Assembly (NCBI GenBank): GCA_944390575.1
Contig: CALXQJ010000001.1
Location: forward strand, 1 to 64,000
DNA length: 64,000 nucleotides
DNA from: an uncultured Spirochaetota bacterium
GTDB taxonomy: Bacteria; Spirochaetota; Brachyspiria; Brachyspirales; Brachyspiraceae
Direction: 5' to 3'
Below are positions 28,093 to 35,244 of the stretch, one piece after another (the first letter of the stretch is position 1; each line of letters opens with the position of its first letter). The notes below the pieces were generated by a model, which saw nothing but the letters and a program-made list of their open reading frames with translations, ran no database searches and was not told the DNA's origin. The translations under genes and the position numbers were made by a program.

Positions 28093-28623
28093 TTATTGGA
28101 ATCTTCTTGGTCTTTCTAATGTTACTAAATAATTCCAGATGTAGTAAAATACAGTATCTTTTGTATTAAAATGCTCTATTGCTTCATCTGTTTTTAATTT
28201 GTTTAGTTTGTTTGAGAATGTATTGTCTTTTAGTAGATTATCTATTTCAATAGACATCATATCTGTATGTTGTTTTATTTCTGTTATTAATTCTATAGGT
28301 AAGTTTCTTTCATAGTTTCTGTTTGTTAAAGTACCTATAGCATATTCTATATTATTTGGTGCTATTTTTAATGCTACTTGATTAGACTTAACATTTTCAT
28401 CTTCTATTGTAGAAGTAGTCCAGTTTTCAAAGTCTAAAACCCAAGTATTATATAGATTTGAATATTTAGAAGATGAGATTAGATAATCATCTTTAATATT
28501 TTCTGGAAGTATATTAATGAAGTTTCTATATCTTTTTTTCATAGCATAAATAGATCCACCTTCATTGTTGCACGATATGATTAATATTAATGTTGCTATA
28601 AGAGCTAATAGTATCTTTTTCAT
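28093..28623 (-). CDS. Small putative lipoprotein, unknown function
   Basis: This is a 176-residue protein starting MKKILLALIATLILIISC, a lipoprotein signal with the acylated Cys at residue 18. The rest is helical and charged with no motif I recognise. The start at 28623 has AGGAAG upstream and a promoter 30-60 bases before it. An in-frame start 66 bases further upstream would put a second hydrophobic stretch before the signal and lies on the promoter, so it was rejected. It is monocistronic, borders the type I restriction locus, and could be host backbone or part of the insertion. Confidence 0.72.
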   Translation of the reverse strand: MKKILLALIATLILIISCNNEGGSIYAMKKRYRNFINILPENIKDDYLISSSKYSNLYNTWVLDFENWTTSTIEDENVKSNQVALKIAPNNIEYAIGTLTNRNYERNLPIELITEIKQHTDMMSIEIDNLLKDNTFSNKLNKLKTDEAIEHFNTKDTVFYYIWNYLVTLERPRRFQ

Positions 28624-28654
28624 TATACTTCCTATAAAAATAAAATTAATAAGA

Positions 28655-28682
28655 ATTATATTATTAACTGTAAAAAATGCAA
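28655..28682 (-). promoter_or_regulatory. Promoter of the small lipoprotein gene
   Basis: On the minus strand TTGCAT is followed after 16 bases by TATAAT, about 32 bases ahead of the chosen start. Confidence 0.55.
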
Positions 28683-28734
28683 TAATCAAATATAGTTTGA
28701 TTTATATAAACTATTTATTTAAGGGCCTATATGT

Positions 28735-28740
28735 TATAAT
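28735..28740 (+). promoter_or_regulatory. Likely -10 box of the hsd locus
   Basis: A perfect TATAAT lies 28 bases upstream of the hsdR TTG start. No good -35 box is visible at 16-18 bases, so a weak or regulated promoter is inferred. Confidence 0.4.
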
Positions 28741-28768
28741 ATATGTAATCATATAATGGAGTTAGAAA

Positions 28769-31492
28769 TTGAAACCAGAAGAGAAATCTAGAATAAAAAT
28801 AGATGAATTATTAGAGTTATCAGGATGGAGTGTTGTTGATGTAAGTGATTTAGATTCAAATTCTAATAAAGCTTTTGCTATTAGAGAAGTATCTATGAAA
28901 GATGGTACAAGAGCTGATTATATACTTTATTATAAGTATAAGGTTCTTGCTATTTTAGAGGCTAAAAAATTTAATAATACTTTAAGTGGTGTGGAAGAAC
29001 AATCTGAAAATTATGCTAATAATATACCAGATTATATGGACTCTAGTAATTTATTTTTCATATATGAAAGTAATGGTTATTAGATAAGATTTAGAGATAA
29101 AAGAGATGAAGAGTCTAGGTCTAGAACTGTATTTGGATTTCATAAACCAGACACTTTATTATCTCTTGCAACAGAAGATACTACTTTAAGAAATAGATTA
29201 AAACATAATATGCCAGAAATAGATAAAAGTGATTTAAGAGATTGTCAGTATGAGGCTATACTTAAAGTTGAGGAGTCTCTAAAAAATAATTGTGAACGAA
29301 CTTTGCTACAAATGGCTACTGGAGCTGGTAAAACAAGAACATCTATTAATTTATTTTATAGACTTTTAAAATATGCTAATGCTAAGAGAATATTATTTTT
29401 AGTTGATAGAAATAATCTTGGAGAGCAAGCTGAAAGTGCTTTTAATGGTTTTAAAGATAATGGAAGAGAATTTAAAGAGAATTATACGATACAAAGACTA
29501 CAAAATAATATTATAAATGAAAATGCACATGTAGTTATAACAACCATTCAGAGGCTTTATTCTATACTAAATAATGATAATGAGTATGATAATTCTTTAG
29601 ATGATAAGTCTTCTTTTGAGAGAGATAGTCAAAATATTATTAGAGAAGTTAAGTATAATAGTAAAGTTCCTATTGAAACTTTTGATTTTATTTTTATAGA
29701 TGAGTGCCATAGAAGTATATACGGTGAATGGCAGATGGTATTAAAATATTTTGATGCTTTTATTATAGGGCTAACAGCTACACCTTCAAAACATACTATT
29801 GGTTTTTTTAATAAGAACTTAGTGTATGAATATTCTTTGGAGCGATCTATCATAGATGGTGTTAATGTTGATTGTAGGGTGTTTAGAATAAAAACAGAAA
29901 TTAGTGAGAAAGGTGCATTATTAGAAGAAAATACTGTTGTACCTATAATGGATAAAGGTACTAGGCGAGAGATTTATGAAAAACTGGAAGAAGATATTAA
30001 ATATGAGAATAAAGATTTAGATAGAAAAGTAATTTCAAAGAATCAGATAAGAACTATATTGCAGGCTTATAAAGATTCTGTATTTACTCAGCTTTATCCT
30101 AACAGAAAAGATGATTGTATACCAAAAACTTTAATATTTGCTAAAGATGATAATCACGCTGAAAATATAGTTGAGATTGCAAGAGAAGTTTTTGGCAAGG
30201 GTAATGACTTTTGTAGGAAAATTACATATACTTCAACTGATCCCAAAGGTTTAATAAGAGAGTTTAATAATAGTTTTGACTTTAGAATAGCTGTTAGTGT
30301 GGATATGATATCTACTGGTAGTGATATTCAAAGTTTGGAAGTTTTAATATTTATGCGTAATATTAGTTCTGAGATTTACTATGAGCAGATGAAGGGTAGA
30401 GGTGTACGCACTATAGATAAAGAAGTTTTAAAAGTATCTACACCTAATGCTTTGGAGGGTAAAGATTTTTATTATCTTATAGATGCTATTGGTATAACAG
30501 AAAATACAAAAAGTATAAGCACACCATTAGAAAATAAAGAGACAAGAAGTATTAGTACAGAAAAACTATTAGAAAGAATAGCATTGGGTGATAGAAGTGA
30601 AAAAACACTAAGAGCTATTGTTGGTAGAATGTCTACATTGAATAAAAAAATTAGTAAGAAAGATATTGATAAATTAAGAGAAGTTTCTCCTAATAAAAAA
30701 ACATTACTAGAGATTACTAATGATATCTATAATACAGTAGATTATGATATTATAGCTAATAAGGAAGAAGTTGAAATTATGAATATGCGTAATGATGCTG
30801 TTGATCCTTTATGTAATTCTAAATATAGAAATGAGCTTTTAAGTATTTTTAATAAATCTTATTATATTATAGATAATGTTAATCCTGATAAAGTTATTTT
30901 TACAGATTTTTCTTTAGAGAGTGCTGCTAAGATTATAAATAGTTTTACTACTTTTATAAGTAGTAATAAAGATAGTATAGAAGCCCTTTCTTTTATATAT
31001 TCTAAAAATTATAAAATAAGTTATTCTTTATTATATGATTTACAAGAAAAACTCTTTGGTTTTAATCATCAATTAAAAATACCTATTATATGGGAAAATT
31101 ATTATTTAGTTGATAAAGAACGTGTTAAGAGCAAGCGAGTAGAAGATATACTATGTAATCTCATTCAGCTTGTACGTTTTGCTATAGGTAATATTTCCAC
31201 ATTAGAGGATATTAATGTTTTAGGTAGTAGAAATTTTGAGTTTTGGAAAGGTAGGCAGAAGCGTAATTATAATATCGAGTTTGATTCGCAACAGAGTATT
31301 TTTTTAGAAGAATTAAAGAAATATATATTATATAATGGTTATATACATAGTAAAAAAGAAATTAACTCAGCATTGGAAGATATAGGGGGTTATAAGCGTT
31401 TTGAGCAATTATTTATAGATTTTTGTAGCGTTAGCAATTTTCATAGCTTAGAAGATATGCTAGATGATTTATCTTTGAGTTTAATTTCTTAA
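28769..31492 (+). pseudogene. hsdR: Type I restriction subunit HsdR interrupted by one in-frame TAG
   Basis: The start is TTG with GGAG seven bases before it. The first 104 codons hold the nuclease motif (TRADYILYYKYKVLAILEAKK, Asp and Glu-x-Lys). A TAG at 29081-29083 ends the frame after FIYESNGY. The very next codons continue in the same frame with IRFRDKRDEESRSRTVFGFH, and the frame runs to 31492. The rest is an intact SF2 motor: Walker A MATGAGKTRT, DECHRS, GLTATPSK and MKGRGVRT. Total conceptual length is about 907 residues, normal for HsdR. The first ATG after the TAG (29210) has no Shine-Dalgarno. Related proteins commonly have NGYEI here, so a GAG to TAG change is likely. Restriction is probably lost. 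Confidence 0.88.
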
Positions 31493-31541
31493 TTTAGTCT
31501 AATAATAACCGAGAATTTTACAAACTATTAAAGGCTAAAGA

Positions 31542-32741
31542 ATGAGCGATATTATTCCACCTGGATGGGAAGAAAAAGAACTAAATGAAGTTATAAATAT
31601 ACAAAAGGGTAAAAAACCTAAGATTTTGTATGAAGAATATCAAGAGAATTTAATTCCATATTTAGATATAAAATGTTTTGAAAAAAATATTGTATCTAAT
31701 TATGCGAATACTGACAATATGGTTATTTATGATAATAATAAAAATCATATTTTAATAGTATGTGATGGTGCACGTTCTGGTTTAGTTGGTAGATATCATG
31801 GTGTAGGAATAGTTTGTTCTACAACAGCTCTTATAATAACTAAGATTAATAAATACTTTATAGAGTATTATTTAATTTCAAAGTATTTATTTTTAAACAA
31901 AAATACTAAAGGCACAGGAATACCACACTTAAATATTAATATGTTGTTAAAATTAAAAATATTAGTTCCCCCTTTAGAAGAACAACAAGCCATAGTATCT
32001 AAAATCGAGAGCGAGTTTGAGAAGATAGACTTAGCCATAGCGAAGCTTGAAAATACATTGGAGCTTTTGGAGAAATATAAACAATCTATATTGAAATACG
32101 CCTTTGATGAGAACTCTCCATTCTCTAAGGGTAATGATTATATTCCTTACGAGTGGGAAGAGAAAAAATTACAAGATATTACAACTAAAATAACAGATGG
32201 TTCTCATAATCCACCTAAAAAACAAACAGAAGGAATTCCTATGTTAAGTTGTCAAAATATAAAAAATGGTAATATATGTTTTGATAATTTTAGATATATA
32301 TCAAAAGATGATTATAAAAAAGAAGAAAAAAGAATTAATATAAAAAGTGGAGATGTTTTATTAACAATAGTTGGAAGTATTGGAGAAACAGCAGTTGTTC
32401 CAAATAATATTGGTATATTTTCTTTGCAAAGAAGTGTTGCTATAATAAGAACAAATCTAAATTCTTTTTACTTGAAATACTTTTTAAATTCAGAATATTC
32501 TATTGAGTATTATCAAAAAAATCAGAGAGGAACAGCTCAAAAAGGAATATATTTAAATATTTTAAAAAATATGTATATTAAATTTCCTAATATTGAGTTA
32601 CAGAACACTATAGCAAAGAATATTCAAGAATATTTCAAAAACAATGATAAATTAAAAAACATAGCTATAGAAAATATACAAAAATTAAAACAATTAAAGC
32701 AGACTATACTAAAAAAAGCTTTTAGTGGAGAACTTATATGA
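31542..32741 (+). CDS. hsdS: Type I restriction-modification specificity subunit HsdS
   Basis: HsdS recognises a bipartite DNA site for the methyltransferase and restriction complex. The 399-residue protein has two target-recognition domains. The first (about 1-145) starts at PPGWEEKELNEVINIQKGKK. The second (about 200-350) starts at PYEWEEKKLQDITTKITDGSHNPP. Each is followed by a long helical spacer: PPLEEQQAIVSKIESEFEKID, and a terminal helix ending LKQTILKKAFSGEL. Both halves look complete. The central helix is encoded with noticeably higher GC than the flanking recognition domains, which hints at domain exchange. It overlaps hsdM by 4 bases. Confidence 0.92.
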   Translation: MSDIIPPGWEEKELNEVINIQKGKKPKILYEEYQENLIPYLDIKCFEKNIVSNYANTDNMVIYDNNKNHILIVCDGARSGLVGRYHGVGIVCSTTALIITKINKYFIEYYLISKYLFLNKNTKGTGIPHLNINMLLKLKILVPPLEEQQAIVSKIESEFEKIDLAIAKLENTLELLEKYKQSILKYAFDENSPFSKGNDYIPYEWEEKKLQDITTKITDGSHNPPKKQTEGIPMLSCQNIKNGNICFDNFRYISKDDYKKEEKRINIKSGDVLLTIVGSIGETAVVPNNIGIFSLQRSVAIIRTNLNSFYLKYFLNSEYSIEYYQKNQRGTAQKGIYLNILKNMYIKFPNIELQNTIAKNIQEYFKNNDKLKNIAIENIQKLKQLKQTILKKAFSGELI

Positions 32742-34174
32742 GGGATATTAATAAAAACAATTTAATAAATAAAGTATGGAATTTGGCTGATGTGCTTAGA
32801 CAAAGTGGTATCGCATATACTGATTATGTTGCTCAGATTACATATATGATTTTTCTAAAAATGGAGTTTGAAAATCTTGAGTTTAAAGATGAAAATCTTA
32901 TACCTGATGAGTATAGATGGGATACTCTACTAAAACTTAGAGCGGAGGACTTGGAAAAGCATTATAATAATATTTTATCTACTTTATCAAAAAAATCCGG
33001 TATTCTTGGTTTAATTTTTGCTAAGGCACAAAATAAAATTGACACTCCTGTGAATCTGCAGAAGATGATTACATTAATTAATGCTATTGATTGGGCCGTT
33101 ATTGATGTAGATATTAAGGGGGAAATTTATGAAGGACTGTTAGAGAAAAATGCTACAGAATCCAAAGCAGGGGCAGGGCAGTATTTTACACCAAGAGCTT
33201 TAATAAAAGCTATTGTAGAGATTATGAAGCCTCAATTAGGATATACTATTATGGATCCTGCTTGTGGTACTGGAGGTTTTTTAATAGAGGCCTTTCATTA
33301 TATAAAAAGAAATATAGGAAAAGACAAAGAGAAAATAAGAATCTTAAAAGAAGAGACTGTATTTGGAGTAGATATTACTCCTTTAGTTGTTAGTTTATGT
33401 GCTATGAATATGTATTTAAATGGGATAGGGGCTAATATTATTCAAGGGGATTCATTACTTAAAAAAGATGATAAAGCATATAATATGATTCTAACAAATC
33501 CGCCTTTTGGAAAGAAAACAGCATTAAAAAATTTTGACTCTAATACAAATGAAGTTGTGGTAGAAAAAGAGCATTATTCTCGAAATGATTTTTTTGCATC
33601 TACTTCAAACAAGCAAATTAATTTTCTTCAACATATTATGAGTATACTCGCTATAAATGGAAAAGCGGCTGTTGTGCTTCCAGACAATGTACTTTTTGAA
33701 GGTGGAGCAGGTGAGGCTGTTAGAAAATATCTATTAAATAATTTTAATCTACATACTATATTGAGGCTTCCAACAGGTATTTTTTATGCACAAGGTGTAA
33801 AAGCAAATGTACTTTTTTTTGATAGAGGGCTACCTAAAGAGGATGAGGCGCTTACTAAAGAGGTGTGGATTTATGATCTTCGTACAAATATGAATTTAAG
33901 TTTAAAAACAAATCCACTTGCAGAAGAGCATTTAGAAGATTTTAAAAATTGTTTTAATGCTGATAATATTACAAATAGAAAAGAAACTTTTAAGTTTAAA
34001 AAATTTACTTATGAAGAGATAATAAAAAGAGATAAAATAAATTTAGATATATTCTGGATTAAAGATGAAAGTTTAGAAAACTTAGATAATCTTCCACAAC
34101 CAGAAGAGTTACTATCAGAAATAAAATCAAACTTTGAAGATGCATTTGATATTTTTAATAAGATAAATATTTAA
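32738..34174 (+). CDS. hsdM: Type I restriction-modification methyltransferase HsdM
   Basis: HsdM is an N6-adenine DNA methyltransferase that works as M2S1. The 478-residue protein has an N-terminal helical HsdM_N domain (about 1-140, NKVWNLADVLRQSGI), the SAM motif MDPACGTGGFLIEAF and the catalytic motif NPPFGKK. The approach motif GAGQYFTPRALI lies before the SAM site. All are intact, so modification should be active with HsdS even though hsdR carries a stop. Its ATG overlaps the hsdS stop (ATGA). Its 3' end overlaps convergent mtnA by 4 bases, so the right border of the locus is abrupt. Confidence 0.93.
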   Translation: MRDINKNNLINKVWNLADVLRQSGIAYTDYVAQITYMIFLKMEFENLEFKDENLIPDEYRWDTLLKLRAEDLEKHYNNILSTLSKKSGILGLIFAKAQNKIDTPVNLQKMITLINAIDWAVIDVDIKGEIYEGLLEKNATESKAGAGQYFTPRALIKAIVEIMKPQLGYTIMDPACGTGGFLIEAFHYIKRNIGKDKEKIRILKEETVFGVDITPLVVSLCAMNMYLNGIGANIIQGDSLLKKDDKAYNMILTNPPFGKKTALKNFDSNTNEVVVEKEHYSRNDFFASTSNKQINFLQHIMSILAINGKAAVVLPDNVLFEGGAGEAVRKYLLNNFNLHTILRLPTGIFYAQGVKANVLFFDRGLPKEDEALTKEVWIYDLRTNMNLSLKTNPLAEEHLEDFKNCFNADNITNRKETFKFKKFTYEEIIKRDKINLDIFWIKDESLENLDNLPQPEELLSEIKSNFEDAFDIFNKINI

Positions 34175-35244
34175 TAAAAATCCTTACTTTCAAAGTTAAA
34201 ATATTCTTCTAAGTTATATGGGGAGAATGCACCTCTATCGGTTACTATTGCGTTTATTAGCTTTGGGGGTGTGATGTCAAATGATGGGTATATAGCCTTA
34301 ACTCCATCTAAGGTATTTTTTATTCCTCTATACGATAATACTTGTTCAGGGTCTCTCTCTTCAATTTTTATATCAGCTTTTGAGTATTTATCTTTATCTG
34401 GTATACCTGTAACATAATAAGGTATATTAAAGTATGAAGCTAATATTGCTGTTTGAAAAGTTCCTATTTTGTTTGCAATGTGTCCGTCTCTTGCTATTGT
34501 GTCTGCTGCTGAAGTAAATATATCAATAGAGCCTTTTTGCATAAGGTATGCTGCCATATTGTCGGTTATGACAGTGGTCTCTATTCCAGACTCTATAAAA
34601 CAAGAAGAAGTAAGTCTTGCTCCTTGTAAATATGGTCTTGTCTCAAGGCAATAGGCTTTGAAAGTTTTATTTTCTTTTTTAGCAGTTCTACACATCATAC
34701 CTATTATAGTTTCTCCAAAGCATTGAGTTAGCACTCCTCCATTATTGGGAATAAGTTTTACTAAGTGTTTTGAAACTTCTTCCATAGTTGAGTATCTTCT
34801 GTTTAGAGATTCTACTGCTGTATCTATTATAGCATCTACTGTACTAACTCCTTCATTAAGAGCTTTTTTAGCAGAGTTTAGGCAGTTGTTTGTTATGATT
34901 CTATATCTATTAGCCGTAGTAGGTCTAGAGTTTGCTATCACTTCAGAAGCTTTTTCTAAATATTCAATTTGTTCTTTTTCATTTTTGTTTTGAACCTCAC
35001 TTGCTGCAATAGCCATTCCCATAGCACAAGCAGTATAAGGTCCAGCACTTTGAGTTACCATATCTGTAATAGCCTTTGCTACTTCTTGGTAGGTAGTACA
35101 TTCTACAAATTTTATCTCAGTAGGGTATATTCTTCTGTCTAATATTCTTACAGTTTTTTTTTCTTTATCAAACCAAGCAACATTTTCATATCTAAGTAAA
35201 AATGGTAAATCATAGTCTTGTCTTTGCATAATTAAATGACTCAC
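34171..35244 (-). CDS. mtnA: Methylthioribose-1-phosphate isomerase
   Basis: MtnA isomerises 5-methylthioribose-1-phosphate to methylthioribulose-1-phosphate in methionine salvage. The 357-residue eIF2B-like protein has TACAMGMAIAA, NCLNSAKKAL, the Cys-bearing GGVLTQCFGETIIGM and ASYFNIPYYVTG, with the catalytic Asp expected in ADTIARDGHIANKIGT. The start is a GTG with no clear Shine-Dalgarno. An ATG at 35229, five codons in, is an alternative. It follows mtnK by 14 bases, and together they handle methylthioribose. Later salvage enzymes are not in the window. The protein could alternatively belong to the ribose-1,5-bisphosphate isomerase branch, but the mtnK partner favours MtnA. Confidence 0.88.
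   Translation of the reverse strand: MSHLIMQRQDYDLPFLLRYENVAWFDKEKKTVRILDRRIYPTEIKFVECTTYQEVAKAITDMVTQSAGPYTACAMGMAIAASEVQNKNEKEQIEYLEKASEVIANSRPTTANRYRIITNNCLNSAKKALNEGVSTVDAIIDTAVESLNRRYSTMEEVSKHLVKLIPNNGGVLTQCFGETIIGMMCRTAKKENKTFKAYCLETRPYLQGARLTSSCFIESGIETTVITDNMAAYLMQKGSIDIFTSAADTIARDGHIANKIGTFQTAILASYFNIPYYVTGIPDKDKYSKADIKIEERDPEQVLSYRGIKNTLDGVKAIYPSFDITPPKLINAIVTDRGAFSPYNLEEYFNFESKDFY

What the first reader, a model, noticed from the sequence alone, without database searches (positions are those of the whole stretch)
28769..31492. Type I restriction gene broken by exactly one amber codon
The reading frame before and after TAG 29081-29083 is the same, and both sides carry conserved HsdR motifs (nuclease before, helicase after). 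There is no frameshift or deletion, so the loss is recent or the base is a sequencing error. TAG is a normal stop elsewhere here (for example ferritin), so readthrough is not expected. Selenocysteine would need TGA.
Basis: partly seen in the sequence, partly recalled or inferred. Interest (0 to 1): 0.65.

Follow-up and report, generated by a model that had tools for sequence, protein, structure and literature searches.

The report
Type I restriction gene with stop codon
In a gut spirochaete (Brachyspira), the DNA-cutting gene of a horizontally gained type I restriction-modification operon is interrupted by one stop codon while its DNA-marking partner genes are intact, so the cell most likely still methylates its DNA but no longer cuts foreign DNA with this system; this is an ordinary, recent loss of function or possibly a one-base sequence error.

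Summary
The PD-(D/E)XK catalytic motifs lie before the stop; the last strands of the nuclease fold, the helicase and the C-terminal domain lie after it. hsdS and hsdM follow and are intact. The genus is Brachyspira. Five Brachyspira relatives (61-67% identical after the stop) have one and the same residue at this column, and 97% of 80 wider homologues agree. It is the only interrupted gene in the 64 kb. RF1 is present and none of the 30 tRNAs found has a CUA anticodon. No second HsdR relative was found in the genome. HsdR is not evolving faster than HsdM on this branch (ratio 1.90 versus 1.91), so the stop is recent. The operon sits between two genes that are neighbours in the closest relatives, so it was gained as a cassette. 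Best reading: a recent nonsense pseudogene leaving a modification-only system. A sequence error cannot be excluded without reads or sister strains. Nothing novel in kind: 2 of 80 homologues carry their own internal stops elsewhere.

The parts
28769..29083 (+). hsdR 5' part: TTG start preceded by GGAG; 104 codons with the nuclease motifs (D50, E64-A-K66, QxxxY), ended by TAG
   Evidence: HSDR_N E 2.9e-06; 51-55% identical to five Brachyspira HsdR N termini, which start with ATG at the same place
29081..29083 (+). premature amber codon (codon 105), aligned to a near-invariant sense position (residue 107 of the Brachyspira relatives)
   Evidence: one residue in all five relatives; one residue in 97% of 80 homologues; invariant in 29 of 29
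29084..31492 (+). hsdR remainder: end of nuclease domain, helicase (ResIII/SWI2_SNF2/Helicase_C), EcoEI_R_C; open to TAA; first in-frame ATG at 29210 without a recognisable Shine-Dalgarno
31542..32741 (+). hsdS, specificity subunit, 399 aa, two recognition domains, intact
   Evidence: Methylase_S, two stretches, E 2.3e-30; PADLOC Specificity_I
32738..34174 (+). hsdM, N6-adenine methylase, 478 aa, intact; overlaps hsdS by ATGA
   Evidence: HsdM_N and N6_Mtase; MTase_I PDLC03026 E 1.8e-174, full length
28690..34174 (.). inserted hsdRSM cassette between the 28093-28689 gene and the 34171-35244 gene, which lie next to each other in close relatives

Best explanation
A horizontally gained type I R-M operon (order hsdR-hsdS-hsdM) in a Brachyspira genome has recently lost its restriction subunit through one nonsense mutation. 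Translation stops at codon 105, giving a nuclease fragment that keeps the catalytic residues but lacks the last strands of its fold and the translocating helicase. HsdM and HsdS are intact, so the cell most likely makes an HsdM2S methylase and no working restriction complex: modification without restriction. Shown: the stop, its place in the fold, the intact partner genes, no second HsdR relative, the intact RF1, the conserved sense position, and no accelerated evolution. Inferred: no restriction activity, methylation retained, and a benefit or neutrality of the loss.
For: Single TAG in an otherwise open 906-codon frame. Five Brachyspira relatives uninterrupted at this place, the position near-invariant in 80 homologues. 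Stop precedes strands 108-112 and 121-123 of the predicted nuclease fold, mean pLDDT 88.7. RF1 present, no CUA anticodon. One HsdR relative in the genome. Window/G004 branch ratio HsdR 1.90, HsdM 1.91; bootstrap ranges overlap. No further stop, which allows at most about 2.1% neutral divergence since inactivation at 95%. Empty site in the closest relatives. Two of 80 homologues have their own internal stops (L135 TAG, L154 TGA). Literature: six of ten laboratory-transformed Streptococcus strains had spontaneous hsdRSM mutations (PMC8084154); HsdS-HsdM complexes only modify (PMC6532042).
Against: A single base in one assembly; no reads and no second strain of the species were available. The TTG start instead of ATG could hint at an older weakening. 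The nuclease part may evolve faster (ratio 2.98), but its bootstrap range is too wide to tell.
Confidence: 0.82

Rival explanations
1. The TAG is a sequencing or assembly error and hsdR is intact in the organism.
For: Only one base is involved; there is no other decay in the gene; the rate test shows full constraint up to now, which is what an intact gene would show.
Against: No other interrupted ORF among about 50 genes in 64 kb, so the assembly looks clean. The single lesion falls in a dispensable defence gene of a kind sometimes broken (2 of 80 homologues) and not in one of the other genes that make up most of the window.
Confidence: 0.12
2. The gene is still used in two pieces or through leaky readthrough: a 104-aa nuclease fragment plus a 760-aa helicase (from ATG 29210), or a little full-length HsdR, giving weak restriction.
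For: Both pieces stay open and conserved; the catalytic residues D, ExK and QxxxY are all before the stop; an ATG follows 127 bases after the stop.
Against: No Shine-Dalgarno before ATG 29210. The split cuts the nuclease fold before its last two strands. No suppressor tRNA was found and RF1 is intact. No relative shares the split. The position is near-invariant, so a misread residue may not work.
Confidence: 0.05
3. The hsdR has been dead for a long time and the open frame persists by chance.
For: Long window branch in the HsdR tree (0.75).
Against: HsdM has the same relative rate (1.91 versus 1.90), so the long branch belongs to the lineage or its divergence and not to decay. About 5.4% of single-base changes would create a stop, and none is seen beyond the one.
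Confidence: 0.01

Closest known systems
HsdR of Brachyspira alvinipulli ATCC 51933 (L090/L081, G002) and other Brachyspira (L079, L080/L091, L082/L092, L083/L093)
   Same: Same protein family, 61-67% identity over the part after the stop; hsdR, hsdS, hsdM in that order where all are on the contig
   Different: Relatives have one uninterrupted frame (L083 runs off its contig end) and an ATG start; G004 has an extra 565-aa ORF between hsdR and hsdS and different neighbouring genes
Spontaneous hsdRSM loss mutants of group A Streptococcus (PMC8084154) and the hsdR-deficient S. aureus RN4220 (PMC6532042)
   Same: Loss of type I restriction through mutation in the hsd locus
   Different: There seen in laboratory strains with a transformation phenotype; here a single genome sequence without phenotype
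Vibrio vulnificus HsdR fragment, PDB 3h1t
   Same: Solved nuclease-helicase core; aligns over residues 40-231 and 304-553 of the Brachyspira relative L079 and covers the position of the stop (organism name from memory)
   Different: Distant (E 6.5e-26) and not interrupted

Membership tests
Type I restriction-modification system | HsdR with PD-(D/E)XK nuclease and SF2 helicase in one chain | tested here: not met
   Both domains are encoded in one frame but separated by TAG 29081-29083
Type I restriction-modification system | HsdS with two target recognition domains | tested here: met
   Methylase_S with two stretches, E 2.3e-30
Type I restriction-modification system | HsdM N6-adenine methylase with HsdM_N | tested here: met
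   HsdM_N 7.8e-14, N6_Mtase 7.4e-73; PADLOC MTase_I full length
Type I restriction-modification system | Methylation and ATP-dependent cleavage activity | not testable with these tools
   needs methylome and restriction assays
EcoAI/EcoEI-like (type IB) HsdR | EcoEI_R_C C-terminal domain | tested here: met
   PF08463 E 1e-11, above gathering score
EcoAI/EcoEI-like (type IB) HsdR | NCBIfam EcoAI equivalog cut-off | tested here: not met
   NF046051 174.9 bits against a cut-off of 550: a relative, not the equivalog
Pseudogene by nonsense mutation | Interrupted frame where homologues are intact | tested here: met
   five of five Brachyspira relatives uninterrupted at this place
Pseudogene by nonsense mutation | Lesion real, not a read or assembly error | not testable with these tools
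   no reads and no second strain held
Amber recoding or suppression | Suppressor tRNA (CUA) or missing RF1 | tested here: not met
   30 tRNAs, none CUA; prfA 505.6 bits, open

The most novel reading that the evidence does not exclude
The amber keeps the operon in a low-restriction state: rare readthrough or separately made nuclease and helicase pieces give trace restriction while methylation stays full.
Probability: 0.04. Interest if true: 0.5.

Novelty: new member of a known kind. Interest (0 to 1): 0.17.

Why it matters
If real, this strain should have one barrier fewer against foreign DNA while it still marks its own DNA. That is of practical use for genetics in Brachyspira and is one more example of a type I system decaying to methylase-only. 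It opens no new mechanism.

Tried and rejected
A phase-variation switch was looked for in 28600-34300: there are no repeats beyond short imperfect matches, and a point stop is not reversible by slippage. A suppressor tRNA or missing RF1 was rejected. A second HsdR that could act in trans was not found by protein and Pfam searches of the genome; only a 1021-aa ORF carrying both HSDR_N and N6_Mtase (type IIG-like) exists on C3. Genome decay or a poor assembly is not supported within the window. A long-dead gene was rejected by the HsdR/HsdM rate comparison. The first scan of genome contigs with the single protein found nothing; the alignment query did. Literature on Brachyspira type I restriction pseudogenes: none in the library.

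Full report
What is there. The frame 28769-31492 on the + strand begins with TTG (a GGAG lies just upstream) and ends with TAA. It has one internal stop, TAG at 29081-29083, codon 105. Before the stop Pfam finds HSDR_N. After it come ResIII, SWI2_SNF2, Helicase_C and EcoEI_R_C. hsdS (31542-32741) and hsdM (32738-34174) follow and are full length with the expected domains. The operon is hsdR-hsdS-hsdM.

Is it more than chance. Both sides align in the same frame with HsdR of five Brachyspira genomes: 51-55% identity before the stop and 61-67% after it; the genus name comes from the named records among them. In a codon-usage scan of the 64 kb, this is the only in-frame stop with coding signal on both sides that is not a normal gene border or an antisense artefact. 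TAG ends eight other ORFs in the window, so it is an ordinary stop here.

Where the stop lies. It aligns to residue 107 of the Brachyspira relatives. That residue is one and the same in all five, in 97% of 80 homologues found across bacterial phyla, and in all 29 sequences of a second alignment. A predicted structure of the intact N-terminal 250 residues of the B. alvinipulli protein (mean pLDDT 88.7) puts it immediately before strand 108-112. Strand 121-123 and helix 129-137 are lost as well. The fragment of 104 aa therefore keeps the catalytic residues but not the whole fold, and has no helicase.

Can the cell read through it. RF1 is present and open. The 30 tRNAs found cover all 20 amino acids and none has a CUA anticodon (the list may have been capped at 30). 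Only one HsdR relative was found in the genome; a 1021-aa ORF on C3 carries HSDR_N and N6_Mtase domains, as in type IIG enzymes. The first in-frame ATG after the stop, 29210, has no Shine-Dalgarno sequence. Readthrough, reinitiation and help in trans are therefore unlikely, though not disproved.

How old is it. On a fixed tree with Brachyspira relatives and outgroups, the window branch is 1.90 times the G004 branch for HsdR and 1.91 times for HsdM. Bootstraps give 1.43-2.60 for HsdR after the stop and 1.33-2.78 for HsdM; the N-terminal part alone is too short to judge. HsdR has therefore been under the same constraint as its intact partner for nearly the whole branch. About 5.4% of single-base changes in the gene create a stop, so the absence of a second one limits neutral drift since inactivation to about 2.1% of sites at 95% (assuming equal rates for all changes).

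Where the operon came from. In the closest relatives (among G011-G014 and G017; about 77% identical at the 34171 gene) that gene lies next to the 28093 gene with a few hundred bases between, wherever both are on the stretch read (four of the stretches). The window has the 5.5 kb operon in between. In G004 the homologous operon has other neighbours. The operon is a gained cassette at this site, and the HsdR tree places it next to the other Brachyspira copies on a long branch.

How common is it. Of 80 homologues, two carry their own internal stop, at other places (L135 TAG at reference residue 529, L154 TGA at 327); four more have stops only at the C-terminal end of the alignment. Spontaneous mutations in hsdRSM were seen in six of ten laboratory-transformed group A Streptococcus strains (PMC8084154), and RN4220 is a known hsdR-deficient strain (PMC6532042). 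Loss of restriction with methylation kept is an established state: complexes without HsdR only modify (PMC6532042).

Verdict. A real feature of the sequence, best read as a recent nonsense pseudogene in a gained type I system, leaving a probable methylase-only system. A base error remains possible (about one in eight by my judgement), because no reads and no second strain could be consulted. Ordinary in kind, low interest.

Noticed in passing
G000:C1:149347-149361 (outside the window, same contig); L078: The programmed frameshift site of prfB (RF2) reads AGGGGG-TAT-CTT-TAA-C, with TAA. All 24 other Brachyspira genomes that hold the motif have TGA there. Since RF1 also reads TAA, RF2 autoregulation is probably weakened in this organism. 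The RF2 body is intact.
   Followed up: partly
G000: The genome is 2.0 Mb at 99.84% completeness, smaller than all 25 other genomes of the genus searched (2.5-3.4 Mb); the window looks compact and without other broken genes.
   Followed up: no
L079:12063-13760: In G004 a 565-aa ORF with a transmembrane-like start and TPR-like repeats sits between hsdR and hsdS; the window operon lacks it.
   Followed up: no
G000:C3:168502-170565 and G000:C2:312916-313503: Two ORFs of about 1021 and 1047 aa with N6_Mtase, the first also with HSDR_N, look like type IIG restriction-methylation enzymes.
   Followed up: no
L135:7591 (Halomonas saccharevitans) and L154:1539 (Sulfurovum MAG): Two other hsdR homologues have one internal stop each, at different places (TAG and TGA).
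   Followed up: partly
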